From Cornus controversa (taxonomy: Eukaryota; Streptophyta; Magnoliopsida; Cornales; Cornaceae): a stretch of 64,000 bases of DNA. Every line of letters starts with the position of its first letter. Position 1 is the first letter of the stretch. Positions 8,709 to 64,000 of the stretch are shown in pieces. The DNA is taken from positions 4,526,001 through 4,590,000 of the forward strand of contig CM048850.1 in assembly GCA_026545225.1 (NCBI GenBank), read 5' to 3'. The notes beneath the pieces are model-generated. The model had not been told where the DNA came from, made no database searches, and saw nothing but the letters and a program-made list of their open reading frames with translations. A program made the position numbers and the translations under genes.

Positions 8709-8854
8709 TGTAAGGACCGGAATTATTTTGACCGGTTCCGGGTGATTTTGGACCGGACCGATTTTTTTTTTTTCGAATAAATTAAAATTCGAAAATATGT
8801 TATAAATATATATATACGGAATTATATATATATTTATATGAAGTTGGAGGATAT

Positions 8855-8890
<36 letters not shown>

Positions 8891-9111
8891 GAAAATATAT
8901 ATATATGCACATGGTGGGCTTATATGCAAATATGAAGAAGTGTGGGTGCCTATACATGATTGTAGGTATAAGTGAGATAAAATATATGGGATATATTTTT
9001 TTGTGTAGCATATATTATATATATATATATGTGTGTGTGTGAAATGTGTGGCTAAGACTAGTTGAGAAAGTGGGTGGACCAAAAGATAAAAGACCCAAGT
9101 GGGTCGGCTGA

Positions 9112-9960
9112 AGAAAAGGAAAAAGAAAGAAAAAGAAAAGAGAAGAAAAGAAAAGGAAAAGAAGAAAAGAAAAAGAAAAGAAAAGAAGAGGGAAGAAGAG
9201 ATCGGGGAGAGAGAAAGAGAGAGTGACGCCGAGAGAGAAGGAGCTTCAGTGCTCCGGCGGCTGCCCCGACGTGGGCCTCTCAACGGCCAGCCGCGGTTGG
9301 TGGCAGCGGCCGAAGGCGGTGGTTGCAGGTGAGCACGGTGGGGGTTTCACCTGGGCGACGGCGGTCGCGACGGCTGGGTTCGGCTGCAGCGGTCACGGCT
9401 GTGGCTTGTTTGGCCGTGGCGGGTGGCGACGGTGCTGGCGGCTCGGTCGGCTGGATCGCTGGGTTTAGCAGGTGAGTTGGGCTTCGGATGCTCACGGTGG
9501 ATCTGGGTTTTCACGGCTGTTTGGACAGCTTATTTGGGGTGGTTCACGGCGACAGTGGACGGTTCTCTTGGCCGAAAGTGCTGGGGTTTTGGGTGGTGTT
9601 TGGCTCGGTTGTAGCAATGTTCGACGGTGGAGACACGGCTGTGTTTGGTTCCGGGTTGGGTTTGGTTTTCAAATGGATTTCGTTTGGGTAGTTGGAGTGG
9701 TGAGTTTTTGGGTGGCCATAGCAGTTCGGTTTAACGGTAAATGGTGGTTGTTCAGGCTGTCCACGGTGGTGAGTGGTGGCTGTTTTGACTTCGGGTATGG
9801 CTGTGCATGGTTCGGCTTTGGAGTCTGTGAGAGTGCCGAAGCTTGGGGCTTTGATTGGGTAATTTTTGGAAGACACGGTGGTGCCCGATGGAGGTGCGAC
9901 AAGGGGTCTTTCGGCCAGTTTTGTGGCTGAAAAGTGGGCTATTATGGCCTGTCCTATGGT
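9112..9960 (+). other. GA tract plus GC-rich island inside the LTR
   Basis: A 130-bp GA-rich run precedes about 700 bp of GC-rich, GGTGG-rich DNA, sharply unlike the AT-rich flanks. Splice-donor-like cag|gtgag strings occur at about 9327 and 9470. Several overlapping ORFs (for example 9472-9930) exist on both strands because stop codons are rare in GC-rich DNA; none resembles a known protein. The homologous LTR has an equivalent tract at 14984-15900. It may be the promoter-proximal untranslated leader; this is inference. Confidence 0.5.
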
Positions 9961-10110
9961 AGTCTTCTTGGCCGAACAGGGTAACTGATATGGGTCCTTG
10001 ATAGTTATGGGTTTTCTTCATGGATTGCATGGACTTTAGCACGGGACCGGACTGGACCAGGCTTGGCATGGACCGCTTTGCAAGCGCGGACTTGGCGAAA
10101 GCTGGACCTA

Positions 10111-10130
10111 AGGCAAGTTGATTCTTGCCT
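10111..10130 (+). repeat. Conserved hairpin AGGCAAG/CTTGCCT
   Basis: Perfect 7-bp stem with loop ttgatt. The homologous LTR retains it at 16274-16289 with the inner five pairs intact. It marks the end of the GC-rich island in both LTRs. Confidence 0.55.
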
Positions 10131-11189
10131 CTATCTCATACAGATATTTTATGTATATTGAGTAATTTACATACGTTTCAATTTAATCATATGTGGTATG
10201 TGTATATACATATATATGTAGGCGTTTATATATATATGTGTATAGGGAATGTGGTACATACATGGGATGTGAGAGGATATACATATGCGTGTGTGTATAT
10301 ATATGTATGTGCGGGTTTGGGAAGCGATAGCATGTTAGATTAATCGCCTAATTGCATTGTGATATGCATGTATGTATAGATTAAAGTCTATGGAAAGCAT
10401 GCTAAATAATACCTGTTTAGCTCTGTATTGTCTTGTATGCATATGTGGTTCTTATGCATGGTGTTCAGGAAGTATATATGTGTATGTGATTATATATATA
10501 TGGTTGCAGTGGTAGAAATGCATGCTAAGTTGAATATAACTTTTGGCCAGCATTTGAAAAGCATGAAATGTGCTAAGTGTTTTATATGTTCTTGATACAT
10601 ATGTGGGTGATGTAATATATATATGTGTATATATATTGTGATTGGAATGCATGTTAGCTACTTGTAATGAATACATGCATTGAATGAGAGCATGACTATA
10701 TTTATGCTAGTGTAAGTGCATATGTGATTTATATGCATGATTTGACATGTACGTGTTTACATGTAGGGTTACGTGAATGAAATGCATGCTATCTGTTTAT
10801 AGAAAATGTATGCATTGGTTATAGCATGATAAAAATATGCTAAGTTGGAATTGTTTGCATATGTGAGGTGTTATGCAAGTATTTGAACACATATGTGCTA
10901 TATGTGTTGGAATGTGACGAAAAGCATGCTAAATACTTCTTTTTAGTATTCATAAGCATGAGTTGAAGCATGAAAGTATTATGCTGTGTATATATGCATT
11001 CATATTGCATGTATAGGAGGGAAATGACATATATGTGGTTATATGTGGCCTTGTGGAGGTGAAATGCATGCTTAGTGTTTTCATAACTTAATTATGCATT
11101 GTTTAGCATGACTCTTAGATGCTTGATCATTATATGTTTGAAATGCATATATGGGCCCGTTGTGAGGAGATGGGAAAGAGTGGTTGAAT

Positions 11190-11500
11190 TGCCTAGAGTA
11201 GGTCAATACTCGGTGAGGGCGTTGGAGTGGTTGAGTCACCTTGGAGTAGAGAATACTCGGTGACAAAATTCAAAAATTTATCTAATCACCTCGGAGTAGA
11301 GCATACTCGGTGATGGTTCGATCACCTCGGAGTAGAGAATACTCGGTGACGAATTTGAAAATGATCTAATCACCTCGGAGTAGAGAATACTCGGTGACAT
11401 ATTTTGAAGCGGTCCAATCACCTCGGAGTAGAGAATACTCGGTGGCGGATTCGGCAGCGGTTCAATCACCTCGGAGTAGAGAATACTCGGTGATGGATTC
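11190..11500 (+). repeat. Hairpin array with CGGAGTAGAGAATACTCGG core
   Basis: Seven units. Each full unit has an outer stem (TCACC/GGTGA type) around a core that itself folds (GAGTA, gagaa loop, TACTC). Examples are 11235-11264 (GTCACC/GGTGAC), 11285-11314 and 11465-11494 (ATCACC/GGTGAT). The first outer pair changes from G-C to A-T on both sides. Spacing is irregular (about 36-60 bp). A reverse-oriented copy of the array begins at about 63920. Confidence 0.8.
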
Positions 11501-12618
11501 CGCAATTGTGTGGGAAGTGTCTCGGTCACATGGTTGGTTGAGAATCATGTTAGGGTGTCGGGTGGGACCCGAGAGAGAGTGAGACGAGTTGATGGAACTG
11601 CTTGTATTTTCTATTGTGAAGCATGCTTTATGTTTAACGCATCCTTATATATGCGTTGTTTGTGACAGAACGTGATATGTGTTCGATATTTATTGCTTTT
11701 GAGCATGTTATATGGTTTAAATGCATCTTTATTGCATTTGAGATGTGCTACTTGATGAGTAGGAGACGTGATGATTGATTTACATCGTTTATGTAAATGG
11801 GTTGATATATATATATATGTTCCATATACATATTGATGCCGGATGTTTACTGCTTTCAAGCATGTTGAAAATGATTTCTAAAATCATGTGTTGTGGATTT
11901 TGTATGTTCATATGTGCTAGAGTAGCCACATACATCATTGGTTCATGCATGCTAGGTGGGGCATGGTCTTAAATATTGTGATATATTTAAGTGCATGTAT
12001 ATTTTTGAGAATATGTGAGGATCGACCTGCTGCAGCGGTGATAGTATGGTTCTACATACCTTGTTGGGCCTTTGAGCTCACCCCCTCCCAGGTTTTGCAG
12101 GTATTGCTGGTTTTGGAGTTAGTTGGGGAAACTGATAGTCCGAGTTGCAGAGGTAGTAAGTAGATTCTTTAGAATCTAATGTATGTCCAGGATAGTGGAT
12201 AGATAGATGCTTTACATTTGGATTAAATGTATGAGGCAATTACGTAGATTCAGTTCCTTTAGTTGTATTTTATTCATGTGATGTATGTATTTAATACGGA
12301 CATTCAAGGACTGAGGCATGTATATTTATGATTGAATTATGCATGTTGTAGAAATATTGGGGGGACACGGGCCCAGAAGTGTCCATTTTTATTGTTTAGA
12401 TATAAATGCTGGGGGGACACGTGCCCAGAAGTGTCCATATAAATTGTAAAGCAGGTATATCATGCCAGGAGCTGATTATTCAGAGTGGGTCATGCCCAAT
12501 TTTTGTAAAAATGATAGGAAATTGAGGTTGTATGATCAGGTGGAGGTTATGTCGTGAGGGTGATCTCACGGGGTTCACACCTCGGTTTCCGGGCCTCGGG
12601 AATCGGGGCGTGACAACA

Positions 12619-14642: not shown

Positions 14643-16436
14643 TGTAAGGACCGAGATTATTTTGACCAGTTCCGGGCGATTTTGGACCGGATTAAATTTT
14701 TTCGAATTAATTAAATTTCAGAAAGGGTGTGGATATATTTCTATATAAGTGGAAGGTGTATGTATATATATATATATATATATGGTACATATATTTATAT
14801 TTAATTATAAATATATGGTGGTGCATATGTATTTTTTTTAAACATGTATGTGGAAGTATGTATATGTTGGGATATATATATATATATATACATGTGTTAT
14901 ATTATATATATGTGAAACATGTGGCTGAAAAAGGAGTTTGGGATATTTGTTGTGTATGAAGATTCAAAAAAAATAAAAGGGAGAGAGAGACCCACGTGGA
15001 TCGACTGGAGAAGAGAAAAAGAAGAAAAGAAAAAGAAAGAAGAAAAGAAAAAGAAAAAAGAGAGAAGGGAAAGTTAGAGAGAAAGAGAGAACCATGATTT
15101 TTAGAGAGAGAAAGAGGAGAACAGAGAGAGAGAGGAGCTGATTCTGGCAACTCGACGGTGATTGTGGCGGCGATTGAAGTGGGCTGAAGGTAGCGGTAGT
15201 GGTCGGAGGAGGTGATCGCTCCGGCGTGGTAAACCTTCTTCGCTCAATGGCCATGGTGGCTAGTGGGTTGTTCTAGGTGGTTTTGAGTGGTTGTTTGGTG
15301 ATGAAAATGAATGTCAACGGTGGTGTGCTGATGGTGAGTGGCTGTGTGGTGGCCGAAAGTGAGCTTTTGTGTGGCTAATGGTGGCTCACTGCTAGAGATG
15401 CTACAGAGAGAGAGAGAGGGGTTTTCACAGCTGGGTCTGTTGGTGGATGTCTGACGGATACTCGTGGCTTTAGGTGGTTCTCGGTGGACTGTTTTGGGAT
15501 GACTCTGTGGGCTGGTACCGAAAGGGGGCTGCTATGTGGGTTCTCCTTGGTTGTTTCCGGTGGAGTTGGTGCCCGGGGTGGTGACTCAAGGCGGGTTGAT
15601 GGTGGCAGCCATGGATGGCATTTACTGGATTGTGGTTGGTGCCCGACGGTGGTCTGCTCGGTGGTGGAGGCTGGGTTGTCTGGTTTGTGGCAGCAGGTGG
15701 TGGTTTTCCGGCGTGGGTGTGGCTGGGACCATTCGGCTGGTGCATCATGGTTGTGGGTTGTTTTGGTGATCTAGTGGGTTCAATTGGTGGTGGCAGCACG
15801 TGTGGCTTGCGGTTGTGAAATGGCTGGTGGAGAAAACCCAGATAGAGGAGCTTGCGACTGTTGACTGGGTGGTGAAGATGATGGTCCGGCCATAAATGAT
15901 TGTGCATTTCTTATGGAGCTTCAATAGGCACAAAATGGACAGTGGGCTACCTATTTACATGGTTTTGATTGGAGGATTTCCTGGGTTAAATTTAGTGCAA
16001 GTGTATATACTGGAGTGTGTGTGTTCAACAAATTCATATATGGGTTGGGTTGGACATGACAGCGAGCTGAAATTGGTTATTTGGGTTAATTCAGATGTGG
16101 GCTGAAATTAGTTACGGGCTTGAATTGTACATGGGCTTGCACAAATAACTTGGACCAATCATGGAAATTAGAAGGAAAGAGAGTGGGTTCACATGTGACT
16201 TGGACACGAGATTGGACTGGGCTTGGTATGGACTGTTTTGCAGACGCGGATTCATTGGAGAGCGGGACTTAAAGCAAGTTGATTCTTGCCTCTATCTCCT
16301 ACGTATATTTTACTTACGTTGGGTAATTTACATATGTCTTAATTTGATCATATGTGGTATGTGTATATCTACATATATGTACTTATATATATGTGTGCAC
16401 AGGTGGATATTGTGTATACGTGAGATGTGAGGATAT
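14643..16436 (+). repeat. Solo LTR 'B', left part
   Basis: Begins TGTAAGGACCG like LTR A. It is flanked by target duplication taggt (14638-14642), repeated at 28472-28476 after the other end. It contains TA microsatellites, a GA tract (about 14984-15140), a GC-rich island to about 15900, and the conserved hairpin at 16274-16289. It is interrupted by the SIRE-like element after 16436. No primer-binding site or coding sequence follows its far end, so it is a solo LTR of about 4.1 kb. Confidence 0.8.
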
Positions 16437-17877: not shown

Positions 17878-17880
17878 ATC

Positions 17881-17891
17881 TCCCCCTTTTT
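17881..17891 (-). other. Polypurine tract of the SIRE-like element
   Basis: Minus strand aaaaaggggga, ending a few bases before the 3' LTR at 17877. It is the expected plus-strand DNA priming site and supports the LTR boundary. Confidence 0.85.
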
Positions 17892-18225
17892 GATGAAGAC
17901 AAATCATTTATGTTATGTGATTTTTGGAATGCTCTTGACAATGCTCCCCCTGTTAACATGCATATTAATTGAACAAAAATGAAAGAATTTGTTTTTCAAT
18001 TATTTTGTGATCATGTATCCTATAAGCACAATTTGACATTAATTTAGCAAAATGATAATTTCATTTATATTCAGGCTAGCACATATGAATTCAAAAAGCA
18101 TGATCATAACACAAAATACCCAAAAATATCCATAACACAAGCTAAAGTCACAAAAGGGCCAAATACATTAGATAAACTAGATGTTTTTATAAACTAGATG
18201 TTCTTACTTCTCCCCCTTTGTCAAA

Positions 18226-19527: not shown

Positions 19528-19639
19528 GTTTGAGAGTGGTGAATTGGAAGAGGAGAAATTTGCTCGTCGGTCGCCTGAAGCAAGGAGGGAAAAGATAGAA
19601 ATGTTTAAAACCTAGGGTTTGCGACTTAAATTTGGGCAC

Positions 19640-19825
19640 AAAGTAGTTTCGGTTGACTGATTACCCGTTTCGGTCGACTGATTGATGTATCAGTCGCCTG
19701 AAGGTGTTTATCAGTCGGCTGAAAAAAAAACTGCATTTTGTTCAGTCGACTGAAAGTGAGGTTTCGGTCGACCGAAACATCTCTTCAGTCGACTGATGGT
19801 TCTATCAGTCGGCTGATAAATGCAG
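19640..19825. repeat. GTCGAC word array between pol and the extra ORF
   Basis: Eight words at about 19649, 19670, 19690, 19711, 19743, 19764, 19783 and 19806, alternating cGGTCGACTGA with variants such as CAGTCGCCTGA, CAGTCGGCTGA and CGGTCGACCGA. In element orientation they lie 110-300 bp upstream of the start codon of the 433-aa ORF. They repeat the vocabulary of the U3 array. Confidence 0.85.
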
Positions 19826-19835
19826 AGTCTCAGAA

Positions 19836-21740
19836 TCAGCAATATGTGACAACTTCATGTTCCAAAGCCATTCCTATTTCTCTTCTTAAGATATTAAACC
19901 TATCTTCTTGAAGAGGTTTAGTAAAAATATCGGCAAGTTGCTTATCGGTTGAAATAAAGATGAGTTCAATATCTCCTTTTGTAACATGATCTCTAAGGAA
20001 GTGATATCGTATTTCAATGTGCTTTGTTCGGGAGTGTTGGATAGGATTCTTAGAAATGCATATTGCGCTTGTGTTGTCACAATAAATCGGAATGTGGTCA
20101 AATGAGAGACAAAAATCTTGTAGTTGTTGTTTGATATATAGTGTTTGGGCACAACTACTTTCGGCGGCAACATATTTGGCTTCCGCCGTAGATAGGGCCA
20201 CGGAGTTTTGTTTCTTACATGACCATGATATAAGTGATTGTCCCAAGAAATGACAAGTCCCACTAGTGCTTTTCCTATCAATTTTGCATCCGGCAAAGTC
20301 GGCATCCGAGTAGCTAAAGAGATCAAAAGAAGTGTTTCTTGGATACCAAAGTCCCAAGTTGGGAGTTCCGCTTAAATATTTGAAGATACGTTTAACGGCA
20401 CTCAAATGTGATTCTTTAGGACAAGATTGAAATCTAGCACATAAGCATACGCTAAACATAATGTCAGGTCTACTAGCCGTTAGATATAGTAGACTTCCGA
20501 TCATACCTCTATAATTTTTGATGTCAACATCTTTCCCTTTTTCATCTTTATCCAAGTTGGATGAAGGACTCATAGGAGTTTTAGCATGTTTGGCTTCCTC
20601 CAAGCCAAATTTCTTTAGCAAATCTTTAACATACTTAGATTGACAAATGAAAATGCCATCAAGTGTTTGTTTAATTTGCAAACCTAAGAAGAAATTGAGT
20701 TCACCCATCATGCTCATTTCAAACTCCTTTTGCATGTTAGATGAGAATTCTCTACATAAGATTTCATTTGTTGAACCAAAAATTATATCATCAACATATA
20801 CTTGTATGATTAACAAATTTCCATTTACAATCTTGGTGAAGAGAGTGTTGTCAATTTTTCCTCTAACAAAGTTATTCTCAAGTAAGAACCCACTTAGTCT
20901 CTCATACCAAGCTCTTGGGGCTTGTTTTAATCCATACAAAGCTTTTGACAATTTATAAACATGATTCGGAAGATTGTGATCCTCAAAGCCCGGTGGTTGT
21001 TCAACGAACACCTCTTCTTCTATTAGACCATTTAGGAAGGCGCTTTTTACATCCATTTGATATAACTTGAAGTTTTTGTAGGAAGCAAAAGCAAGTAGCA
21101 TTCGAATGGCCTCTAGTCTAGCTACGGGTGCAAAGGTTTCTTCATAATCAATTCCCTCTTCTTGATTATATCCTTGAGCTACAAGTCTAGCTTTGTTTCT
21201 AGTAATGACCCCTGATTCATCCTTTTTGTTTCTAAAAACCCACTTAGTCCCGATAATTGTCTTATCTTTAGGTCTTGGAACCAATTTCCACACTTGATTT
21301 CTTTCAAATTGATTTAGTTCCTCTTGCATTGCAAGAATCCATGACTCATCATTTTCGGCTTCACAAAAGTTTTTAGGCTCAATTTGAGATACAAAAGCCA
21401 AGTGATTGCACATATTGTTAACTTTGGATCTAGTACTAACTCCTTCGGATGGACTACCAATGATTTGATCAATTGGGTGATTTTGTACAAATTTCCAACT
21501 TTTAGGAGGACAATCATCTTCTTTTTCGTTAGAAAGATCTTTGTCAAGGATTTCTTTTGGGGAATCATCAACCATAGGCTCATTATTTTTTGATTCAATG
21601 CTAGCGATTTCATGAGATGTTTCTATTTCTCCCCTTTCATCATCATCATCATCTAAAATTCTTTTGGGAGGAGGGGGGAGTGATTCATCAAAAACAACGT
21701 GTATAGATTCAACAACCGTTAGAGTTCTTTTGTTGAACAC
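19836..21740 (-). pseudogene. Copia pol, C-terminal part: reverse transcriptase and RNase H
   Basis: 634 codons. RT begins at about residue 130 ([22 protein letters not shown]), with TAFLNG-type [27 protein letters not shown] and the catalytic [11 protein letters not shown]. RNase H follows with the YSDADFAGC and [13 protein letters not shown] blocks and the terminal TKPLQEDRF. Catalytic residues look intact. The first residues ([19 protein letters not shown]) are the RT-proximal linker that is in a different frame from the integrase part, so translation as one polyprotein is broken. The stop is followed by the spacer carrying GTCGAC words. Confidence 0.93.
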
Positions 21741-21769
21741 TCTATAGGCTTTGCTTCTAGATGAATATC

Positions 21770-22951
21770 CTAGAAAAACACCTTCATCGGATTTAGCATC
21801 AAATTTTCTAAATTATCCTTATCATTAAGGACAAAACATTTGCATCCGAAAACTTTGAAATAACTAATGATAGGCTTCTTCTCATTCCAAATTTCATATG
21901 GTGTTTTGTCAATGGTTTTTCTAATGATCACTCTATTTATCACATAGCAAGAAGTACTTACGGCTTCGGCCCATAGGTATCTAGGAAGATTATGCTCATT
22001 TAACATTGTTCTAGCCATTTCTTGGAGAGACCTATTTTTCCTCTCAACAACTCCATTTTGTTGAGGAGTTCTAGGAGCGGAGAGGTTGTGATTGTATCCA
22101 TTTTCATCACAAATCCTTTTAATGTCTTGATTCTCGAATTCTCTACCCCTATCACTTCGAATGGTTTTAATCTTAAACTCTTTTTCATTTTGAACTTTTC
22201 TACAAAAATTTGCAAAGATAGAAGAAGTCTCATTTTTGTGAGAAATGAAGAAAACCCAAGTGTATCTAGAGAAATCATCTACAATTACAAATGCATAGAG
22301 TTTTCCACCAAGACTAGCAATTCTTTCCGGTCCAAACAAATCCATGTGAATTAAGTCGAGTGGCCTAGTAGATGTGATATCCTTCTTTCTTTTAAAAGAA
22401 GATTTAACTTGCTTTCCTAGTTGGCAAGCACTACATGTCATGTCTTTCACATATTTAGTCTTTGGGAGGCCTTTGACCAAGTCTTTTGAAGACAATTTTG
22501 AGATTAAGTCCATACTAGCATGTCCTAGTCTTCTATGCCACAACCAACTACTATCACTAGATGACACAAAGCATTTAACATCTTGATCATGTAATTCACA
22601 TAAAAGCAAGGAATATAAATTTCCATTTCTATTAGCCGAGAAGATTTGTTTACCATCTTTTTCAACAATGCATTTATTTGATTTAAATGTAACACTAAGT
22701 CCAATATCACATAGTTGACTAATGCTAAACAAGTTATGCTTTAATCCTTTAACTAATAAAACATTATCAATAGATAGGAAGGATGAAATACCAATAGTTC
22801 CTATGCCGACAACTCTTCCTTTGGAATTGTCCCCAAATGTTACGCTTCCACCATCATAATGTTTAATGGAGGTGAAGATTGAACGATCTCCCGTCATGTG
22901 CCTTGAGCATCCGCTATCAAGAAACCATTTATCTTTGGTTGTAGATTTCAA
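21770..22951 (-). pseudogene. Copia pol, N-terminal part: aspartic protease and integrase
   Basis: 393 codons. Protease: WFLDSGCSRHMTG near residue 10. Integrase: zinc-binding region (HRRLGHASM ... CSACQLGKQ) around residues 140-185, then the DDE core with the D of LIHMDLFGP, the D of TIRSDRGREFEN and the E of QNGVVERKNRSLQEMARTML. It goes out of frame near 21806, where the sequence appears to lack one base relative to the downstream frame, then stops. Upstream it is in the same frame as gag and separated only by a TAG at 22958-22960. Confidence 0.92.
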
Positions 22952-22957
22952 GCATAC

Positions 22958-24637
22958 CTACAAAAAGACATTATGTAACTTCTTTTGGTACCCATGGATC
23001 TTTGGGTCCATATTGGTTAGTTTTTTTTGAAAGGTTCCTTTTACAACCCATACCATTTTTCCATGTCTCTTTCTCTTGAAAGGACAATCAAAAATTTTGT
23101 GTCCCTTTCTTAAGCAAATATTGCATAGATAATTGGAGAAAGGTGATTTATGTTTCTTAACAAAGGTCTCCCTAAGAGATTTTCTTTTCTTGATTAAACA
23201 TAAATCTTTGTTGTAAGGAATATATCCAAGACCTTCTTTGAGAGAGGAACATTTTTGCATTCCTAACATGAGACTTAAGTTCTCTTTACCTTTGGTGAAT
23301 TTTGCAAGAGTTTCTATTTGATCCTCAATGATCTTTCTCAATTTTTCGTTCTCTATTTTAAGAGCGATTGAGAAGGAGTTGTTTGAGGATAAATTTTCTT
23401 GCTCCTTTTTCAAAGAATCATTTTCATTTTGAATTTTTGCAAGACTTTGAGAGAGGTTATGATTTTTTCCTTTAAGAGAAGCACATTTTAAGACCATTTT
23501 TCTAAATTCATCATGCAATTCTCTAAAGGCATCTTGCAATTCATTGTGAGAATCAATTAATTCATCATAAAGATCATCTTGAGATTCAAGGTTAGAGGTT
23601 ACCTTTTCTCCGAAAGCCATGAGGCAAAGGTTTGCCATTTCCTCATCATTATTATCATTGAATGGTGATTCATCATCATCACTCCATGTAGCATTCATGG
23701 CCGCTTTCTTCTTTTCCTTATCTCTCTTGTATTTGAGGCAATCGGATTTGAAGTGCCCGGGTTTCCCACAATGAAAGCAAGTTGGAGTATCCTTAGGTTG
23801 GTTATTCCTTGAATGATGTCCCCGATTGGCCTTTTTCAATTGGAGCATCTTCCGAAATCGATTGGTAATGAGGGCAAGTTCTTCTTCCACATCACTTGAC
23901 TCATTTTCATCTTCCTTGCATGTGGCTTGGAGAGCTAAACTCTTCTTTAGTTTAGAGTCTTCTTGAATCTTTTCTTCACGGCTATTCAAGGTAATCTCCC
24001 AAGTTAGAAGAGATCCAAGGAGTTCATCAAGAGCGAGTATGTTGAGGTCATTTGATTGTGTGATAGCCGCCGCTTGTGCATCCCATTTTGGAGGCAGACT
24101 TCTAAGAACTTTTCGATTCATATCACAATTTGAATATTTCCTACCAAGATGCAATAAACCATTAATAATAGTAGTGAATCTAGTAAACATATCGCTAATT
24201 GATTCATTTTCTTTCATAGAGAATAACTCATATTGGTGAATGAGAAGATCAATTTTAGATTCTCTAACTTGCTTAGTTCCTTCATAGGTTACAATTAACT
24301 TGTCCCAAATTTCCTTAGCCGTTACACATGTGGAGATTCTATTATACTCGTTTGCACTTAAGGCACAATTGAGGTTGACTTTGGCCTTGGCATTTATTGA
24401 GATGAGTTTGAGATCATCTGAGTTCCATTCACTCTCAAGTTTTTCAACTTTTTCTTCTCCTACATTTTTCATTGGAACAAAAGGTCCATTGACAATAACT
24501 TGCCAAATTTGATAGTCTTGGGCTTGTAGAAAGTCTATCATCCTATTTTTCCAATAATTGTAGTTTGTTCCATCAAACCAAGGAGGTCGATTATTTGAAT
24601 GACCTTCTTCATGTTGACGATTTCCTATGTTAGCCAT
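22958..24637 (-). CDS. Copia gag polyprotein region (559 codons)
   Basis: Starts MANIGNRQHEEGHSNN. The N-terminal half carries the copia gag pattern (PWFDGTNYNYWKNRM and the UBN2-like region to residue 230). A CCHC knuckle, CFHCGKPGHFKSDC, lies near residue 290. Then comes a long coiled-coil-like segment (350-460) and a second knuckle, CNICLRKGHKIFDC, near 510. Long gag with extra coiled coil is usual in SIRE/Maximus. It ends at a TAG that is in frame with pol (next codons lead to DKWFLDSGCSRHM), so either a nonsense mutation or a suppressible stop. The start codon is 40-50 bp after the primer-binding site. Confidence 0.9.
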   Translation of the reverse strand: MANIGNRQHEEGHSNNRPPWFDGTNYNYWKNRMIDFLQAQDYQIWQVIVNGPFVPMKNVGEEKVEKLESEWNSDDLKLISINAKAKVNLNCALSANEYNRISTCVTAKEIWDKLIVTYEGTKQVRESKIDLLIHQYELFSMKENESISDMFTRFTTIINGLLHLGRKYSNCDMNRKVLRSLPPKWDAQAAAITQSNDLNILALDELLGSLLTWEITLNSREEKIQEDSKLKKSLALQATCKEDENESSDVEEELALITNRFRKMLQLKKANRGHHSRNNQPKDTPTCFHCGKPGHFKSDCLKYKRDKEKKKAAMNATWSDDDESPFNDNNDEEMANLCLMAFGEKVTSNLESQDDLYDELIDSHNELQDAFRELHDEFRKMVLKCASLKGKNHNLSQSLAKIQNENDSLKKEQENLSSNNSFSIALKIENEKLRKIIEDQIETLAKFTKGKENLSLMLGMQKCSSLKEGLGYIPYNKDLCLIKKRKSLRETFVKKHKSPFSNYLCNICLRKGHKIFDCPFKRKRHGKMVWVVKGTFQKKLTNMDPKIHGYQKKLHNVFL

Positions 24638-24677
24638 GGATCAACTCTAAGTCGGTAAAGACAATGTTAGAGCCGAG

Positions 24678-24689
24678 GCTCTGATACCA
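24678..24689 (-). other. Primer-binding site of the SIRE-like element (tRNA-Met)
   Basis: Minus strand TGGTATCAGAGC, two bases inside the 5' LTR end at 24692. It confirms orientation. Confidence 0.92.
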
Positions 24690-24691
24690 AT

Positions 24692-26132
24692 TGTTACTCA
24701 GGAATTGACTCTAGAGGGGGGGGGTGAATAGAGTCTATAGTAATAATAGATAATTTTTATTTATCAAACTCCAAGATGACAGAATCAATTTCTCTTCTAC
24801 TTAAGCAATGAATGTTTGATGAATAATTTAGCAATATAAAGCACAATATAGTAAGATAGAGATAGAGAGATCAAACACAATTGACACGATGATTTTTGCG
24901 AGGTTCGGAATTCCTACTCCTTGGCTCAAGACCCCTCTTGAGACTTCCCGTGTCCAATATAGCTACTCCTTGCAGGTGGAGTGCAAAACCTTCTTATATA
25001 AGAGAAGCTCCTTCTCTTAATCTTCCTTGGGTCACACCAACCCTTTGCTAAAGGAACAACCTCCTTTAGGCTTTCTTTGGATCAAACTGATCCTTTTGAA
25101 TGGAGAAGTTTTACACAGGAATCTCTAAAAGATTGATTTACAATTTGAAGCTCTCAATATGGTTTTCTCTTCCAATAGATAGATACACAAGTGTAAGCTC
25201 ACAGCCTAAATGAATCACAAGTGTTTAAAGCTCAAGTCTTTGAAAAACAGAGTATTTGAAACGAATGCTCGATTGATTTTATCAGAATTGATTTTCTCAA
25301 GTTCAGTGACCAAAAATATTCATAGAGTCATTCCTATTTATAAAGAGGAGATCAGACAAGCCCGTTTTAAAATAGTTGCACAAGTGGTTTGAGGCATTAA
25401 ATGCAGAAACTAGCCGTTAATTTTCTGAACCACCAGGTTTCGGTCGACTGATTATTTCATCGGTCGACTGAACCAAGTGTTTCGGTCGACTGAAGCTTAG
25501 ATTCGATCGACTGAAACTCCTCTGTTTTGAAAACCCTACTGGAATTTTTTCCAGTATTTTTCAGTATTCATCAGTCGACTAAATAGATGATTCGGACGAC
25601 TGATACGCTAGTTTCGGTCAACTGAAGCTGATCTTCGGTCGACTGAAACTCCCCTGTTTTGTAAAGCCTACTGGAATTTAATTCTAGACTTGTTCAGTCG
25701 GCTGAAGGACTTCATCGGTCGACTGACACTGTATGTATGTGCGAGGGAACTGATTTTTGAATGGTCATTTAGATGAGATCATGAAAGACTTGAGCTTTAC
25801 TTGAATTCAAATAGACTTTAACATTATTTCCTAAGTACTCACCATCCTATCTACCCCTTCATCAAAGTGGACACTTGTTTGAGATGTTTGATCCTGGAAG
25901 ACTTTGACACTTTGAATGATTCATTTTTGATGCTTCTTCACGATCCTTTCTTGATTTCATATGGCACTTCTTTGAACTTGAAGGCGATGGTATTTCTTGA
26001 AATATGTCTTTATATATATGATCACTGGCATAATTACTTAAATGAAGATATTAGAAATAAAAACATCATAAATGATTTGTAATCATCAAAATTACAAGAT
26101 TGCCCTTAGGTTAAAAAACTTTCGGGTCAACA
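24692..26132 (-). repeat. 5' LTR of the SIRE-like element
   Basis: Same length as the 3' LTR and differs at about nine sites, mostly transitions. Its GTCGAC word array is at 25440-25730, with one word mutated to GGTCAACTGA. ORFs at 25210-25392 and 25867-26082 are LTR sequence, not genes. Confidence 0.92.
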
Positions 26133-26137
26133 GATAT

Positions 26138-28471
26138 ATATATATGTGTGTATATATATATGTGTGTGTGTGGGTTTGGGGAGCGATGACATATTAAATT
26201 TAATCGCTTATTTGCATCGTGATATGCATGTATTGTATTGATTGAAATCATGTAAAAAGTATGCTAAATTACGTACATGTTTAGCTATGTGTTGTCTTAT
26301 ATGCATATGTGGCTTTTATGCATGGTGTTAAATATATATGTGATTATATATTTGTGGTGGTAATGGAAATGCATGCTATATATATGAATATGGCTTTGGC
26401 GAGCATTTGAAAAGCATGAAATGTGCTAAGTGTTTTATATGTTCTTAATACATATATGGTGACGGAATATATATATGTGGTTATATATATTGTGAATGAA
26501 GAGCATGCTAGTTACTTGTAGTGAATGCATGTCTTGAGTGGAAGCATGGTTATATTTATTCTAGTATACATGCATATGTGACTATATGCAGGATGTGACA
26601 TATATATGGGTTTATATGTGGGAACGTGAATATGAGATGCATGCTAGTTTTATTTATATATCGAATGTATGCATTGGTTGTAGCATGATAAAAATGTGCT
26701 AAATTGAAGTTGTTGGCATATATGAGGTATTATGCGGGTTTTGAACATGTATGTGCTATATGTGTTGAAATGTGATGAAAAGCATGCTAAATACTTCTTT
26801 TTAGTATTCATAAGCGTAGGTTGATGCATGAAAATTTATACTATGTATATATGCATCCATATTGCATATATGGGAGGGAAATGACACATACGTGGTTATA
26901 TGTGGATTTATGTAAAGAGAAATGCATGCTATGTACTTTAATACTAGCTGGTGCATTGGGATAGCATAAAATAAAATGCTTGATTACGTATGCATCCACA
27001 TTACATATATGGGAGGTTGCAGGAAAACTTAACCCAAAAAGAGGTACACGGGACTTTGGAGTGGTCCAACCGTGTCACGAGAAGTGGTATAATTATCCAC
27101 TACGTATGGCCCTCGGAGTGGACCCGCCATACAAAGGCTCTATGCCTAGAATTGGAGAATGTCCAACATTAGTGAGTTTCGGAGTTGCCCCTCACAATTT
27201 GGCAAACCAATATATATTGTCATCGGAGTATGTCTAAGAAGTATAGCCCTCGGAGTGGACCCGCCATGCTCAAGCTTAATGCCTGGAATTCGGAGTATGT
27301 CCAACGAATGTGAGCCTCGGAGTTGGCCCCTCACATAATGGCAATCCTATACATTGCCATGGTAGAATGACCTTTCAGAGTGGTCCAGGTCATAGGATGG
27401 TTATCGGAGTTGTCCTAAGTCACATGATCCTTGGAGCGGGCCAATCATGTGGGGTATCGGATGAGGGCCAAGAGTCAGAGTATATGCAAGCCTTGATGCT
27501 TGTATTATGTATCGGATTATGACTATGGAAGGTGAAAATACCTTTATGCTTATGTGTTTATCTGTTAAGCATGTTTTTCTATTTACATGCATCTATATCG
27601 CATTTGAGATGTGCTACTTGACGAGTAGGGGAAGTGGTAGTTGATTTACATTGTTTATGTAAATGTGTTGACATATATGTTCTATATACATATTGGTGCT
27701 GAATGTTTAGTGCTTTCAAGCATGTTGAAAATGATTTCTAAAATCATGTGTAGTGGATTTTGTATGTTTATATGTGCTAGAGTAGCCATATACATTGTTG
27801 GTTCATGCATGCTAGGAGGAGTATGGTCTTAAATATTGTGATATATTTAAATGCATGTATATTTTTGAGAATATGTGAGGATCGACCTGCTGCAGCGGTG
27901 ATAGTATGGTTCTACATACCTTGTTGGGCCTTTGAGCTCACCCTTTCCCAAGTTTTGTAGGTATTGCTGATTATGGAATTAGTTAGGGGACTGACAGCAC
28001 CGGTTGCAGAGGTAGTGTCTAGATTCCTTAGAATCTGATGTATGTCCAGGATAATGGATAGATAGACGCATTACATTTGGAATTAAATGTATGGAGCGAT
28101 TATGTTGATTCAGTTCCTTCAGTTGTATTTTATTCATGTGATGTATGTATATAATACGGACATTCAAGGACTGAGACATCTTTTTTTGATTGTATTATGC
28201 ATGTTGTAAAAATGTTGGGGGGTCACGTGCCCAAAAGTGTCCATTTTTATTATTAGATATAAATGCTGGGGGGACACGTGCCCAGAAGTGTCCATATGAA
28301 TTTAAAGCAAGTATAACATGCCAGGATCTGATTTATTAGAATGGGTCATGCCCAATTTTCGTGAAAATAATAGAAAATTAAGGTTATATGATCAGGTGAT
28401 GGTTATGTCGTGAGGGTGATCTCATGGAGTTCACACCTCAGTTTCTGGGCCTTGGGAATCGGGGCATGACA
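26138..28471 (+). repeat. Solo LTR 'B', right part
   Basis: Continuation of the LTR left at 16436. Its 3' end is GGGGCATGACA, followed by the target duplication taggt at 28472-28476. It includes the hairpin array at 27046-27502 and the acceptor-like block near 27930-27960. Short ORFs inside (26980-27237, 27310-27522) coincide with the hairpin array and are not considered genes. Confidence 0.8.
27046..27502 (+). repeat. Hairpin array with conserved core and changing stems
   Basis: Long-loop hairpins: 27046-27075 ACACGG/CCGTGT; 27104-27132 GTATGGC/GCCATAC; 27172-27195 GTGAG/CTCAC; 27308-27336 ATGTGAG/CTCACAT; 27367-27393 ATGACC/GGTCAT; 27393-27417 TAGGA/TCCTA; 27421-27451 CACATGAT/ATCATGTG. 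Loops are 14-18 nt, mostly 15, and resemble cctcggagtggaccc. Between them are short-loop hairpins: 27083-27101 AGTGG/CCACT, 27152-27165 TTGGA/TCCAA, 27199-27210 TTGG/CCAA, 27338-27360 ATGGCAAT/ATTGCCAT, 27487-27502 CAAGC/GCTTG. Confidence 0.85.
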
Positions 28472-28654
28472 TAGGTGGGTTGGGGTATTCCTACTGAGTC
28501 GTTAAAATGCTCACCCCGTTCCCCTAAACATTTTTATAGGTATGACACTATGGATGGAAAGGACTTGATGATTCAAATGGAGCTCATAGGAGCACTTTTG
28601 GATATTCTGGGGCATTTTTTAATGTTTTGTTCATAGACTATGTATTTGTCTATC

Positions 28655-40100: not shown

Positions 40101-40280
40101 CACAAAGTTAAAGAAAATTGCAAAGCAATTGATATATTATTGATAAATTGATTGATTGATTTCTACCCTATGGCAGTACATATATTTATAATAGAGAAAT
40201 CCTAATCATAACAACACAAAGAAACCTAGAAACAGAAGGAAATTTGTAGAAACCCTAATCCTAATAGGATAAGGAGAGCT

Positions 40281-60112: not shown

Positions 60113-61002
60113 CCGGTCTCTAAGTGCTCTCTCAAAATCTATAGTACGATCATCAAGAGAATCTCATGCTCCTACATAGAAGAAGAATACACAAGAATAT
60201 CATCCACTAATACCACAACAAACCTATCCAAGTATACACTGAAGACTTGGTTCATTAAGTCCATAAACACCGCCGGTGCGTTAGTTAAATTAAATGGCAT
60301 CACTAGAAACTCATAGTGTCCATATCTAGTCCGAAAAACTATCTTCGAGATGTCCTCTTCCTTTACCCTCCATTAGTAATACCCCGACCTCAAGTCGATC
60401 TTTGAAAATCACATTGAACCCTTGAGTTGATCAAACAAGTCATCTGTCATTGGGAAATGATATTTTTTCTTGATCGTTGCTTGGTTTAATTTCTGGTAGT
60501 CTATACATAAACACAAAGATCCGTAATTCTTCTTAGCAAAGAGGACTGGAGCTCCCCAAGGTGATGTACTAGGTCGTACAAATCCTTTGTCTAATAATTC
60601 TTGTAATTGATCTCTCAACTCTATTAATTCTACCAGGCCTATACGGTACTGTGCAATAGAGATGGGCATGGTACTAGGAGCAAGATCAATGCTAAACACC
60701 ACATCCCTCATCGGAGGTAACTCCATCAAGTCCCCCAAAAATACATCTAGGAATTCACACATCATTGGTGGAAATCCTCCATAAGTCATAACCTCATCAT
60801 CCTTGGCTAACAAGCTAATTAGGAAACACCTAATCTTGTTCTGAGCACCGAAATTAAGTAATGACGATATGTAGAAATTATTGCGCTCTCCCACAAAATA
60901 GAAGCAATCACCCTTGGGTATGTATATCGTCAGTCTCCTACAAAGACAATCAATTGTGGCTCTAAACGTAGACAACCAGTACATACTTAGAATAAACATC
61001 AA
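60113..61002 (-). pseudogene. Ty3/Gypsy chromovirus reverse transcriptase remnant
   Basis: RT pattern: [40 protein letters not shown]-type block, [37 protein letters not shown] and [14 protein letters not shown]. Stops at about 60406 and further on. It is cut at 60113, before the RNase H. Preceded by the protease region, minus orientation. Confidence 0.85.
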
Positions 61003-61060
61003 AAGTGGTCATATCTAGCAGCACAAAGTCGAACACTAGTCGACGTACCACAATCTCAAT

Positions 61061-62040
61061 CTAGCAAGACTGACACACTCTACCTGGGGTAAGTTTACCC
61101 CCAATAGGTATATCAATAGACAATTGTGATTCCAGTGATGACACTTCTAGCCCCAAGGCATAAGCAAATGCTGTAGATATGAATGAATGAGATGTACCTG
61201 AATCTATCAACACCCTAGCCCACGAGCTAGAAATCAAGAAAATACCTCTAACCACTAACGGCCCTAGTAGCTTCTTTGCTTGGGCAAGTGTGAAAACACA
61301 GCTCTGTGTCTGTTGACACTACTGGCTAGTCCCCTGTAATCCCGATTACTGACTAGAAGCAGGCATAGACCCTCTCGCTGCTTGAGAACCATGTACTGAC
61401 TGAGCTAGCTGAGGTGGTGGCAACGCCTTAAAGCTAGAGTGAACTGTGGCAACTTGTACAGACCTTTGCTGAGACCTTGAACCACTCTGTGTACTCTACC
61501 TCTGTGGGCAGTTCATCCTAACATACCCCAACTGACGATAATAGAAGCATGTCCACGCCCCCACTGATACCACTAGTACTAGAACCACAACTTGCATCTG
61601 AGGGCACTCATCTCTGTAATGGTTAGACTGCTGGCAATGATAGCACACCACCGTAGATTATGAAGATCCGGTAGGTAAAGTCAATGAAGGCACTGGGTGT
61701 GTCTGTTGTTTCCCCTAAGAAAGTGACATGTTCTCTCTATGCCTTTTCCTTCCTTGATTACCCAAGAATGCCACGGCACCCTTCGTCTGATTCTTAGAGT
61801 CCAATATCCTTTGGGTATCTCTACCGTCTTCCTCTGCTACCAATACTAGGTCAACTACCTCATCATAGTCTTTCAATCCTAGAATTGATACCCCTTTTGT
61901 GATAGAGGCCTTCAACCCCTTCACAAATTTTTTCATTGCTACCATTTTCTGGCTCAAGCCAATCCTAGGTTGCACTTGAACTTCCTTTTCTTGAGCTTTT
62001 CTTGCGATTTGTTTCATGGTATCTACAATGTCTCGCATGA
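61061..62040 (-). pseudogene. Ty3/Gypsy chromovirus gag C-terminus and protease
   Basis: Gag tail (61715-62038), knuckle-like CYHCQQSNHYRDEC near 61640, then a second Cys-rich stretch, then the protease with RVLIDSGTSHSFISTAFAYALGL (61061-61255). Stops near 61340 and 61480. The N-terminal half of gag and the leader are missing: only about 107 bp separates it from the LTR, with no recognisable primer site. Confidence 0.8.
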
Positions 62041-62389
62041 ACTGTGCTTTATTTATTGGCTCTTGTGGAGCATCAGCGCCTCTACCTCACGCTCTTCCTG
62101 GTGCATTCTTGCTATACACATAATGAAGGAAATTCAATACCAAGCATGTCACGCCCCAATTTCCCGACTCTTGGGAACCGAGGGTGAAGAGTAAAGGTCC
62201 CACCCAGCTCACGTCCATAAATCGCTAAGTCTCCAGAATCTAACTTTATGTACATTTAGAATCCAAGTTTGATACTTATCCCATTAGAAAGAGGATCCAA
62301 AAATACTCAATTTCAAAAAAGAATCACTTGATTTGGATTTGAAACGACCAAGTTATGCCTATTTAAAAAATTTGAAAATCTGCATTAAT

Positions 62390-63060
62390 CGACTTGTCAG
62401 TCGACTTCAGGGAAGCACAGATACGCCATTTGTATAGCTGTGGCCGTATCGGACACGTATCCGATACGGATAAGGCCCGAATACATGTCCGATACAACTA
62501 AGAAGTATCCAATTTTTTAAAATTATTTTTTGAATATCGGATACGGCTGGGATACGGGAGGGATACGGTTAGGATACGCGGAATATGTCAAGATACGGGA
62601 ATGATACGGCTGGGATACGGGAAGGATACGTTTAGGATACTTTTTGGGGCAAATTTGTAATTTTTTGTTATATAAAATGGGGTTGATATGTAATATTAAA
62701 AATTTTATAGGTTAGAAAATAAGAATTATTTTATAATAAATCAAAAATAGTTTTAAATACATTTATTTTATGGTTGAAGAATAACACTTAATATTTTATT
62801 TATAATATTATATTTTATTTATTTATTTATTTAACGTATCCTTGCCGTCTCCGTATCCTACTTTTTTGAGATTTTTCGTATCGCTGTATCCGTATCGTAT
62901 CATACTCGTATCCCGTGTCTGTATCCGTGCTTCTTAGGTCGACTTATAGGGCATCAATCGACTTATGAACTAAATCAGTCGACTAATTTGCTGTTCTAGA
63001 AAGCTCTAAAACACTCTATCAACGTTAGTTGACTTATAGAGAGGAGTAAGTCGATTACTT
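62390..63060. repeat. AGTCGACTT word array in LTR C
   Basis: Words near 62390, 62400, 62938, 62957, 62977 (AGTCGACT), 63031 and 63050, interrupted by the hAT element. It occupies the same place, 240-390 bp from the LTR end, as the GATGCATC words in LTR D. Confidence 0.7.
62408..62937. mobile_element. Non-autonomous hAT element, copy 2
   Basis: 530 bp with a perfect eight-base duplication gtcgactt (62400-62407, 62938-62945). Termini CAGGGAAGCACAGATAC and, reversed, CTAAGAAGCACGGATAC. Interior has many GGATACGG units on one side and inverted GTATCCG units on the other. It landed in one of the GTCGACTT words of the LTR. Confidence 0.9.
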
Positions 63061-63506
63061 CAGCCTGAAAATTCCATTTCATACCTTCTTGACCAAAATT
63101 TACCCCAATACTTATATATAAACCTTTCCAACATATAAAGCTCATCCAACCACATTCAAATCATCTAGAAATGTTATATCATCATACCCATTCATCAAAT
63201 CACACACTTGAATCACAAAGGTCTCATAATCCATTTTCATTCTCATCAAGATTACATATATCTCTACATATGTCCACAAATTCTCATAAACCAAGCTCAT
63301 CTTCATACATACAAGATTCAAATGAAAACATAAGTTACATGTATGGAAATGTAACTACAACATTTATATAGTCCCAAAACATTCATTGGATCCAAAATAT
63401 ACATCCCAAATCTAAACGACTTCCAAATTTATAATCATTATAAGGATTTCATGCATAAAGTCCAAAAATGCTAAAAATTCAACCATGACTACAATTTCCT
63501 AATCAA

Positions 63507-63525
63507 CGTGCCACAAGCCGGCACG
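63507..63525 (-). repeat. Hairpin CGTGCC/GGCACG with 7-nt loop
   Basis: Stem 63507-63512 and 63520-63525; loop on the LTR strand is ggcttgt. Counterpart of 28655-28673. Confidence 0.6.
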
Positions 63526-64000
63526 GATAGCCAAATATACAATATCCAAAATATATCAAAATACTACTAGAATTCCACTTAGACACTCAAGTCCCTTCCG
63601 TCATTGATGTCTAATCTGTAAAAAAGTTTAGAATAAGGGGGTGAGCACCACTGCGGCTTAGTAGAGATACCCCAACGCTCCTAAGTGTCGACCGACAACG
63701 ACCTACATGAATGTATGTCACTACATTACATGTATCATCCAACATATACCATGTTCATCCACAGACAATGCATATATATATATATAAAAATGCATTAAAC
63801 ACATAGCATGCTTCACAATTTAGAATGAAAGTATTAACCACACACTTGTCTCTCTCTCGAACTCAACCCAGAACCCTAACATGATTCTTGACCAAACCAT
63901 GTAACTTAGACACTTCCCACAATATTCCAACTCCGTCATTGAGTATTTACCTACTCCAAGGTGGGTAGACTACCGTCACCAAGTATTTACCTACTCCAAG

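What the first reader, a model, noticed from the sequence alone, without database searches (positions are those of the whole stretch)
27046..27502. Hairpin array with a conserved loop core and stems that change together
At least seven hairpins have 14-18 nt loops (mostly 15) that look like one sequence (c-c-t-c-g-g-a-g-t-g-g-a-c-c-c and variants), but each is closed by a different 5-8 bp stem: GTATGGC/GCCATAC, ATGTGAG/CTCACAT, CACATGAT/ATCATGTG, ATGACC/GGTCAT, TAGGA/TCCTA, ACACGG/CCGTGT, GTGAG/CTCAC. Short-loop hairpins alternate with them. Random drift would break stems before it broke loops; here stems differ and still pair. This implies either selection for structure or a copying process that makes new inverted repeats around a fixed core. 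I know of no named LTR feature like this.
Basis: seen in the sequence. Interest (0 to 1): 0.88.

Follow-up and report, generated by a model that had tools for sequence, protein, structure and literature searches.

The report
Selected hairpin array in retrotransposon LTR
A repeated plant mobile element carries, in its long end repeat, rows of small hairpins whose paired arms differ from unit to unit yet match, and comparison with other copies in the same genome indicates that the paired arms were kept by selection while the element was active.

Summary
The hairpins are real (63 stem bp against 26.7±9.1 in shuffles, 0 of 500). Over 14 cores, own flanks pair far better than swapped ones (0 of 5000). 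The array lies in a ~4.1-kb solo LTR (TSD TAGGT). A related LTR in the window is followed by Ty3/gypsy protease and RT. In 39 other genomic copies, private mutations hit stems and loops about alike, but inherited variants avoid stems: 0.087 per site against 0.205 in loops (0 of 539 rotations). The contrast recurs over the ~2.3-kb zone and in a second subfamily, where it fades with longer stems. In a third subfamily six paralogous hairpins keep slightly different outer stems, with C-G / U·G / U-A series. Best reading: stem-loops selected for pairing in the active lineage, perhaps acting as RNA. Against RNA: the G·U preference fails a composition control, whole-array RNA folding is no better than shuffles, and compensated double changes are not in excess in the flanks. 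Sirevirus LTR palindromes are the nearest known feature, but there the arms are conserved. New variant of a known kind.

The parts
14643..16436 (+). 5' part of the solo LTR (copy 2) that holds the array; starts TGTAAGG, preceded by TSD TAGGT (14638-14642)
26138..28471 (+). 3' part of the same solo LTR, after the nested copia element (16437-26132, TSD GATAT); ends GCATGACA, followed by TSD TAGGT (28472-28476)
27046..27512 (+). hairpin array (type II): 14 degenerate cores around T-Y-G-G-A-G-T about every 35 nt, 7 of them inside long-loop hairpins (6 of 7 intact in this copy)
27046..27075 (+). hairpin unit ACACGG/CCGTGT (first pair A-T in 17 and G·T in 23 of 40 copies)
27104..27132 (+). hairpin unit GTATGGC/GCCATAC, standard pairs in 39-40 of 40 copies at each position
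27172..27195 (+). hairpin unit GTGAG/CTCAC, whole stem standard in 39 of 40 copies
27308..27336 (+). hairpin unit ATGTGAG/CTCACAT, whole stem standard in 36 of 40
27338..27360 (+). short-loop hairpin ATGGCAAT/ATTGCCAT (outermost pair A·G in 28 of 40 copies)
27367..27393 (+). hairpin unit ATGACCT/AGGTCAT, whole stem standard in 38 of 40
27421..27451 (+). hairpin unit CACATGAT/ATCATGTG, whole stem standard in 36 of 40
8709..12615 (+). related LTR (copy 1, 3907 bp), followed by TGGTATCAGAGC at 12619, which I recall as an initiator-tRNA-Met-type primer binding site
11186..11495 (+). hairpin array (type I) at the same LTR position in copy 1: 7 units with inner GAGTA/TACTC, 6 of them with outer TCACC/GGTGA (or GGTGG) and a 3-nt bulge
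62147..64000 (-). related LTR (copy 3); its array is cut by the window edge (63934-64000) and seen whole in L048:1935-2241
60175..61318 (-). Ty3/gypsy-type protease (61064-61318, RVP_2 7.5e-21) and RT fragment (60175-60372, RVT_1 1e-7) downstream of copy 3's LTR
26138..27045 (+). upstream hairpin zone, second loop class (TGTG) with differing stems
27513..27966 (+). downstream hairpin zone up to the splice-acceptor-like site

Best explanation
The array is a set of stem-loops in the long LTR of a Ty3/gypsy-type plant retrotransposon family. Shown: the arms pair; arms differ between units while the loop core is kept; and in the array's own subfamily inherited (not private) changes avoid the stems, with supporting but weaker signs in two other subfamilies. 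Inferred: pairing mattered while the element was replicating and stopped mattering once a copy was inserted. Inferred, about 0.55: the acting molecule is the element's transcript, whose variable stems present a conserved loop core to a protein. Inferred, about 0.2: that use is genome packaging or dimerisation; alternatives are splicing or translation control of a long leader, since the array begins 2.45 kb (copy 1) or 2.7 kb (copy 2) into a ~4-kb LTR, upstream of a conserved splice-acceptor-like site.
For: Own against swapped flanks: 0 of 5000. Covariation over 7 paralogous units: 14 cells changed on both sides against 5.2 shuffled, 0 of 500; slid partners pair in 28-43% of cells, the structure itself in 73.5%. 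39 genomic copies: singletons per site stem 0.302, loop 0.328, outside 0.346 (124 of 539 rotations as low); variants in >=2 copies 0.087, 0.205, 0.199 (0 of 539); in >=3 copies 0.024, 0.107, 0.128 (0 of 539). Whole zone, stems >=5 bp: >=2 copies 0.248, 0.362, 0.384 (0 of 2294); singletons 0.360, 0.364, 0.429 (101 of 2294). Copy-1 subfamily, 29 copies: shared transitions and transversions in stems 0.50 and 0.47 of the non-stem rate (0 and 1 of 2556), singletons 0.77 and 0.85 (270 and 817 of 2556), stems >=5 bp. Shared variants keep pairing more than singletons: 31 of 58 (>=3 copies) against 33 of 148, stems >=6 bp; copy-3 family 17 of 28 (>=2 copies) against 10 of 44. On transitions and paired changes only: p=0.004 (stems >=6) or 0.05 (>=5) in family 2, 0.16 in family 3, combined 0.0014 or 0.017. 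Copy-3 family: six units keep their outer stems, the five pairs next to the bulge standard in 15-21 of 21 copies each, with C-G/U·G/U-A series at three pairs.
Against: Whole-array RNA folding is not better than shuffles and single units only weakly so. With stems picked automatically, the array's >=2-copy depletion is 22 of 427 rotations (>=3 copies 0 of 427), and the upstream zone alone is weak at stems >=6 and >=7 (52 and 99 of 868). At stems >=5 bp private variants are also slightly low in stems (101 of 2294). After composition correction inherited G·U-making and A·C-making transitions are depleted about equally (0.78/0.78, 0.92/0.69, 0.85/0.72 of expectation at stems >=5/6/7; rotations 560, 73, 292 of 1152). 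In the copy-1 subfamily transitions and transversions are depleted alike, and the effect fades with stem length (at >=7 bp 63 and 499 of 2556). Double compensated pairs are not in clear excess: 5 against 3.6 and 4 against 2.4 within family 2, 1 against 1.2 between families. In the copy-3 array site-level depletion is slight (0.233 against 0.248), and the steps of its C-G/U·G/U-A series are all C>T or G>A, the commonest mutations. A model from type I units finds no type II unit at E<=1. No expression or protein data.
Confidence: 0.55

Rival explanations
1. DNA-level palindromes: the inverted repeats are cis-regulatory sites (dimeric factor sites or cruciform-prone DNA) of the LTR promoter, as proposed for Sirevirus LTR palindromes.
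For: No robust G·U against A·C asymmetry; short-range folding is enriched on both strands and more with DNA parameters; in one subfamily transitions and transversions are depleted alike, as fixed sequence would be; palindromic LTR arrays elsewhere are read as cis-regulatory (PMC2829016, PMC10760457, passages). Two loops, in the two copies of a 137-bp duplication, hold GTGGNCCC, which I recall as a class II TCP site.
Against: A dimeric factor site keeps its arms; here arms differ (identity 0.35) and the loop is kept (0.73). In family 2 inherited transversions are depleted more (0.32-0.46) than transitions (0.69-0.92) in stems, which points to pairing rather than fixed sequence.
Confidence: 0.25
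2. A mutational copying process (template switching in replication or reverse transcription) keeps making perfect inverted repeats around a palindromic core, without function.
For: Template switching can create and repair stems in one event (PMC8794818; abstract and start of the introduction read). A cluster of four adjacent differences between the two 137-bp duplicates makes one arm of a 5-bp inverted repeat ATTCG/CGAAT at 27288-27309.
Against: That repeat is complete in only 6 of 40 copies (one search had scored it one base out of register). The copia LTRs and interior of the window lack the excess. A purely mutational process predicts no difference between inherited and private variants, yet the depletion in stems is far stronger for inherited ones.
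Confidence: 0.12
3. Hairpin transcripts from the array mainly serve host recognition: they are diced to small RNAs that silence the family.
For: In maize, Copia LTR hairpins with CACCGGACNNNGTCCGGTG attract small RNAs (PMC10760457, passages).
Against: Short stems with 15-nt loops are poor Dicer substrates (general knowledge, not tested), and such an effect would select against pairing, not for it.
Confidence: 0.05
4. Chance or low-complexity artefact of an AT-rich tandem repeat.
For: Plain stem length ranks only 126 of 1271 for the window at 27001; a similar-looking tandem array at 43110-43554 has no hairpin excess.
Against: Dinucleotide shuffles 0 of 500; stems with >=2 G/C rank 9 of 1271; swapped-flank test 0 of 5000.
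Confidence: 0.03

Closest known systems
Sirevirus (Ty1/copia) LTR repeated palindromic motifs
   Same: Plant LTR retrotransposon; arrays of small inverted repeats inside the LTR in many copies.
   Different: There the paired arms are the conserved motif with a CGG-CCG signature (PMC2829016, passages) and the host element is Ty1/copia; here arms differ and the loop is kept, and a related LTR is followed by Ty3/gypsy-type protease and RT. In maize, Ty3 elements lacked an obvious hairpin peak (PMC10760457, passages).
Dispersed RNA packaging signals (for example hepatitis B virus, loops with RGAG)
   Same: Many stem-loops with a shared short loop motif (abstract start of PMC7612645 seen in the listing). 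The cores here read GGAG or AGAG in 7 of 7 units.
   Different: Works-like comparison only: different virus group, no binding data, array confined to the LTR.
LARD-type large non-autonomous LTR elements (recalled)
   Same: Copy-1 relatives include 7 array pairs 5.9-6.6 kb apart among 40 rows, which with a 3.9-kb LTR would leave about 2-2.7 kb of interior.
   Different: Interiors were not read; membership not tested.
Retrosat2-type long LTRs of rice
   Same: LTR over 3 kb; there most of the LTR is R, that is transcribed (PMC3485330, passages).
   Different: No hairpin or palindrome is mentioned in its main text (0 occurrences of either word).
Template-switch-made RNA hairpins (PMC8794818)
   Same: Perfect stems, multi-base changes that keep pairing.
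   Different: Describes a mutation process; the inherited-against-private contrast here needs selection as well.

Membership tests
Sirevirus LTR palindromes | Ty1/copia Sirevirus element | tested here: not met
   Copy 3's LTR is followed by RVP_2 and RVT_1, not RVT_2. The array's own LTR (copy 2) is a solo LTR without pol, so the link is by LTR family.
Sirevirus LTR palindromes | conserved palindromic arms with CGG-CCG signature | tested here: not met
   Arm identity 0.35 against loop 0.73; arms such as GTATGGC/GCCATAC and CACATGAT/ATCATGTG.
Sirevirus LTR palindromes | array upstream of the TATA box, in a CpG island | not tested
   Start site unknown; no CpG-island call made.
Ty3/gypsy LTR retrotransposon | protease and RVT_1-type RT next to this LTR family | tested here: met
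   RVP_2 7.5e-21 and RVT_1 1e-7 downstream of copy 3. Copies 1 and 2 share the LTR family; no such interior was found with them in the window.
Ty3/gypsy LTR retrotransposon | integrase downstream of RT; chromodomain (Tekay/chromovirus clade) | not tested
   Not searched past the RT fragment; a clade name would be recalled from LTR ends only.
Solo LTR | complete LTR between identical 5-bp target duplications, no interior | tested here: met
   TAGGT at 14638-14642 and 28472-28476.
Rfam RNA family | reaches a curated gathering score | tested here: not met
   0 matches in the window.
Dispersed packaging signals | binding of the loops by the capsid protein | not testable with these tools
   No binding data.

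The most novel reading that the evidence does not exclude
The Ty3/gypsy family carries, inside an LTR intron or leader, a fast-turning-over array of RNA stem-loops that present a constant loop core (RGAG-like) on ever-changing stems: an array that marks only full-length unspliced RNA for packaging or control, and that is rebuilt in each subfamily (types I and II).
Probability: 0.15. Interest if true: 0.85.

Novelty: new variant of a known kind. Interest (0 to 1): 0.6.

Why it matters
[quoted passage not shown] A family with many dead copies gives a test of selection on non-coding structure: private mutations are the neutral yardstick, inherited ones the test. If the array acts as RNA, it would be a structural cis-element of a major class of plant genome filler, open to direct probing.

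Tried and rejected
Rejected or weakened readings. (1) 'Stems in the LTR flanks are conserved between copies 1 and 2': largely ascertainment; neutral simulation gives stem divergence 0.077-0.080 (3' flank) and 0.139-0.142 (5' flank) against 0.044 and 0.111 observed (14-15 of 300 and 33-36 of 300 as low). (2) 'G·U is preferred over A·C in stems': a composition artefact, gone or weak after per-base correction. (3) Excess of A·C-interrupted stems: all 13 are TA-repeat stems, several in more than one register. (4) The 43110-43554 tandem array as a second example: no hairpin excess. (5) One origin for type I and type II units by covariance model: not found. (6) Relatives in viral and prokaryote collections: 0 matches to a 25-nt conserved LTR block, not to the array. 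(7) Pair-keeping p values are inflated by more transversions among private variants; the transition-only figures are the ones to use. (8) One search's long-stem excess is not counted, as TA runs enter it many times. (9) One search's row 'alt27289' was one base out of register; one search replaces it.

Literature: searches listed no paper whose title or abstract start describes conserved-loop, variable-stem arrays in Ty3 LTRs. I saw those listings, passages of PMC2829016, PMC10760457, PMC3485330, PMC3601003 and PMC6911290, the abstract and start of the introduction of PMC8794818, and the abstract start of PMC7612645. Bousios 2016 is not held and is known to me only through PMC10760457.

Not done: the copy-4 subfamily (search unanswered); 19 of 39 listed copy-3 relatives and 10 of 39 copy-1 relatives were not read. 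Search rows are the best 40 of 2141, 2612 and 2446 first-look candidates, so divergent copies are under-sampled.

Full report
WHAT IS THERE. The window is plant DNA (named matches of a copia protein are plants) from a 772-Mb assembly. The array 27046-27502 lies in a solo LTR of about 4.1 kb, 14643-16436 plus 26138-28471, flanked by TAGGT on both sides and interrupted by a copia element 16437-26132 with target duplication GATAT. Related LTRs lie at 8709-12615 (copy 1, followed by TGGTATCAGAGC at 12619), on the minus strand from the window end to 62147 (copy 3), and, read by eye, as an older piece into which copy 2 inserted (copy 4, 14197-14642 continuing at 28472). Copy 3 is followed by a protease (RVP_2, 7.5e-21) and an RT piece (RVT_1, 1e-7), so this LTR family is Ty3/gypsy-type. 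The clade name Tekay would be recall only.

IS IT MORE THAN CHANCE. Ten non-overlapping perfect hairpins hold 63 stem bp against 26.7±9.1 in dinucleotide shuffles (0 of 500), and loops of 13-18 nt number 10 against 2.0±1.35 (0 of 500). The fairest test uses all 14 cores: own flanks sum to 59 bp of best stem, swapped flanks to 39.6±4.0 (0 of 5000). For 7 units picked because they have stems, 14 cells change on both sides against 5.2 in shuffles (0 of 500) and slid partners pair in 28-43% of cells against 73.5%. Against this, whole-array folding is ordinary (z +0.26, -0.8; -0.34), and single units folded alone are matched by 28 to 107 of 500 shuffles, 470 for the decayed one. Folding limited to 32 nt beats shuffles on both strands, but so does one of three non-LTR stretches.

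THE ZONE. Hairpin excess covers the LTR from about 10030 to 12000 (copy 1) and 26133 to 28000 (copy 2): mean z 4.06 over 9 windows, against 1.23 in 4 windows of copia LTRs, 1.00 in 13 of the copia interior and 0.45 in 82 others; a few windows outside the zone also reach z 3 to 3.5 (8501, 9001, 14501, 19501, 56001, 59501), the first three in this LTR family. Upstream of the array a second class has loops starting TGTG and differing stems; own flanks beat swapped ones in copy 1 (4 of 4000) and copy 2 (51 of 4000); of three control stretches one is also low (46 of 1000), two are not (865 and 817 of 1000).

GENOMIC COPIES. The array query gave 2141 first-look candidates, 40 scored, 93-95% identical apart from the window itself. 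In the 39 others plus the window (mean identity 0.945) the seven long-loop stems are standard as a whole in 34 to 39 of 40 copies. Variants seen in one copy only should be mostly post-insertion and so neutral (inference): 0.302 per site in stems, 0.328 in loops, 0.346 outside (124 of 539 mask rotations as low). Variants in two or more copies, taken as inherited from active elements, are 0.087, 0.205 and 0.199 (0 of 539), in three or more copies 0.024, 0.107 and 0.128 (0 of 539), all at sites where the window carries the commonest base. The whole zone repeats it with stems of 5 bp or more: shared 0.248, 0.362, 0.384 (0 of 2294), private 0.360, 0.364, 0.429 (101 of 2294). By part it is uneven: with automatically picked stems the array gives 22 of 427 (>=2 copies) and 0 of 427 (>=3 copies), and the upstream zone 4, 52 and 99 of 868 at stems >=5, 6 and 7. 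In 29 copies of the copy-1 subfamily shared transitions and transversions in stems are 0.50 and 0.47 of the non-stem rate (0 and 1 of 2556), private ones 0.77 and 0.85 (270 and 817 of 2556); at stems >=7 the shared figures are 0.62 and 0.70 (63 and 499 of 2556).

PAIRING OR SEQUENCE. Shared variants keep pairing in 31 of 58 cases (three or more copies) against 33 of 148 private ones at stems of 6 bp or more, but private variants hold more transversions, also outside stems. On transitions and paired changes only, shared (two or more copies) against private gives p=0.004 at stems >=6 and p=0.05 at >=5; the copy-3 family alone p=0.16; combined p=0.0014 or 0.017. In family 2 inherited transversions are depleted more than transitions (0.32-0.46 against 0.69-0.92 of expectation); in the copy-1 subfamily they are not. 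The G·U preference is gone or weak after composition correction (560, 73 and 292 of 1152 rotations), so the strand, RNA or DNA, is open. Compensated double changes are not in clear excess (5 against 3.6 and 4 against 2.4; 1 against 1.2).

THE THIRD SUBFAMILY. Copy 3's array continues outside the window (L048) as units with inner GAGTA/TACTC and outer stems that differ at one or two pairs. In 21 copies (20 fetched of 39 other rows listed; mean identity 0.890) six homologous units keep their own outer stems: ATCACC/GGTGAT, CTACC/GGTGG, AATCAC(T or C)/GGTGATT, TCACC/GGTGA, GTCATC/GGTGAC, CCACC/GGTGG, each of the five pairs next to the bulge standard in 15-21 of 21. Three pairs run through C-G, U·G and U-A (12 TG, 5 TA, 4 CG; 9 TG, 7 CG, 2 TA and 3 unpaired; 15 TG, 4 CG, 2 TA), and one inner pair is G·T in 21 of 21 where the other units have mostly T-A. 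These steps are all C>T or G>A, the commonest mutations, so the series are suggestive, not proof. The first of the seven units does not fit the register. Among variants in these stems 17 of 28 shared ones keep pairing against 10 of 44 private ones, while the number of shared variants per site is hardly lower in stems (0.233 against 0.248). Twelve units of copies 1 and 3 covary (covariation score reached in 3 of 500 shuffles). Swapping outer arms among the six units is only moderately worse (48 of 720 permutations as good for standard pairs, 10 of 720 for Watson-Crick), because their stems are similar.

TWO ARRAY TYPES. Type I (copies 1, 3) and type II (copy 2, and by eye a remnant in 4) sit at the same LTR position and share the core TYGGAGT. 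Five of five type I units and three of seven type II units fold as outer stem, 2-4 nt bulge on the 5' side, inner stem, loop. A covariance model of type I units finds type I units but, in the window and eight loci, no type II unit at E<=1, so common descent is plausible but unproven. The arrays differ while the LTR around them is 80-88% identical between copies 1 and 2, so they turn over faster.

HOW IT MAY WORK. Stems that vary while a loop core is kept suggest that the loop is read and the stem is a holder, the reverse of a palindromic factor site. In copy 1 the zone is T-rich (0.35) with 51 ATG per kb, follows a CAG|GTGAGT donor-like site at 9469, and ends with a 92-nt stretch identical in copies 1 and 2 (4 of 5000) that leads into CTCACC...TTTTGCAG; an acceptor-like site recurs in the four copies. 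This fits an intron or long leader; in Retrosat2 most of a >3-kb LTR is R (PMC3485330, passages). Whether the array is transcribed was not shown.

VERDICT. A real array, present in many copies, with stems selected at least in its own subfamily, in a Ty3-type LTR family. It resembles Sirevirus palindromes in setting but fails their defining feature of conserved arms, so it is filed as a new variant of palindrome-rich LTR regions, not as a member.

Noticed in passing
10200-11050 and 26138-26900: Second hairpin class: loops starting TGTG with different perfect stems (ATGCATA/TATGCAT, AACACATA/TATGTGTT, TTGCATA/TATGCAA and others).
   Followed up: partly
11992-12083 with 12077-12101; 27937-27961: 92-nt run identical in LTR copies 1 and 2, running into a branch-point plus splice-acceptor-like site that recurs in copies 3 and 4.
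   Followed up: partly
G000 rows: Copy-1 arrays include 7 pairs 5.9-6.6 kb apart among 40 rows, which suggests young ~10-kb elements with only 2-2.7 kb of interior (non-autonomous).
   Followed up: no
47651-57966: Large inverted and direct duplications (96-99% identical) carrying RT/RNase H domains and, at 51949-52605 minus, a viral movement protein domain PF01107 (1.6e-21): looks like endogenous caulimovirid-type sequence. Described only.
   Followed up: no
43110-43554: Tandem array of about 25/50 bp (GACTCTCGACGAGAGTCGCC-like) that looks palindromic but has no hairpin excess over shuffles.
   Followed up: partly
13296-13459: Tandem 50-bp repeat with GGGGACATAGTCCC-like palindromes downstream of copy 1's primer binding site, and an 84-bp tandem at 13064-13232.
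   Followed up: no
12903-13019: Copia RT fragment (RVT_2, 1.5e-8) in what remains of the interior of copy 1.
   Followed up: no
27288-27309 against 27151-27172: Clustered differences between the two 137-bp duplicates that make a 5-bp inverted repeat ATTCG/CGAAT, of the kind a template switch would leave; complete in 6 of 40 copies.
   Followed up: partly
40000-40456: A non-LTR stretch with strongly low short-range folding energy on both strands (z -4.6).
   Followed up: no
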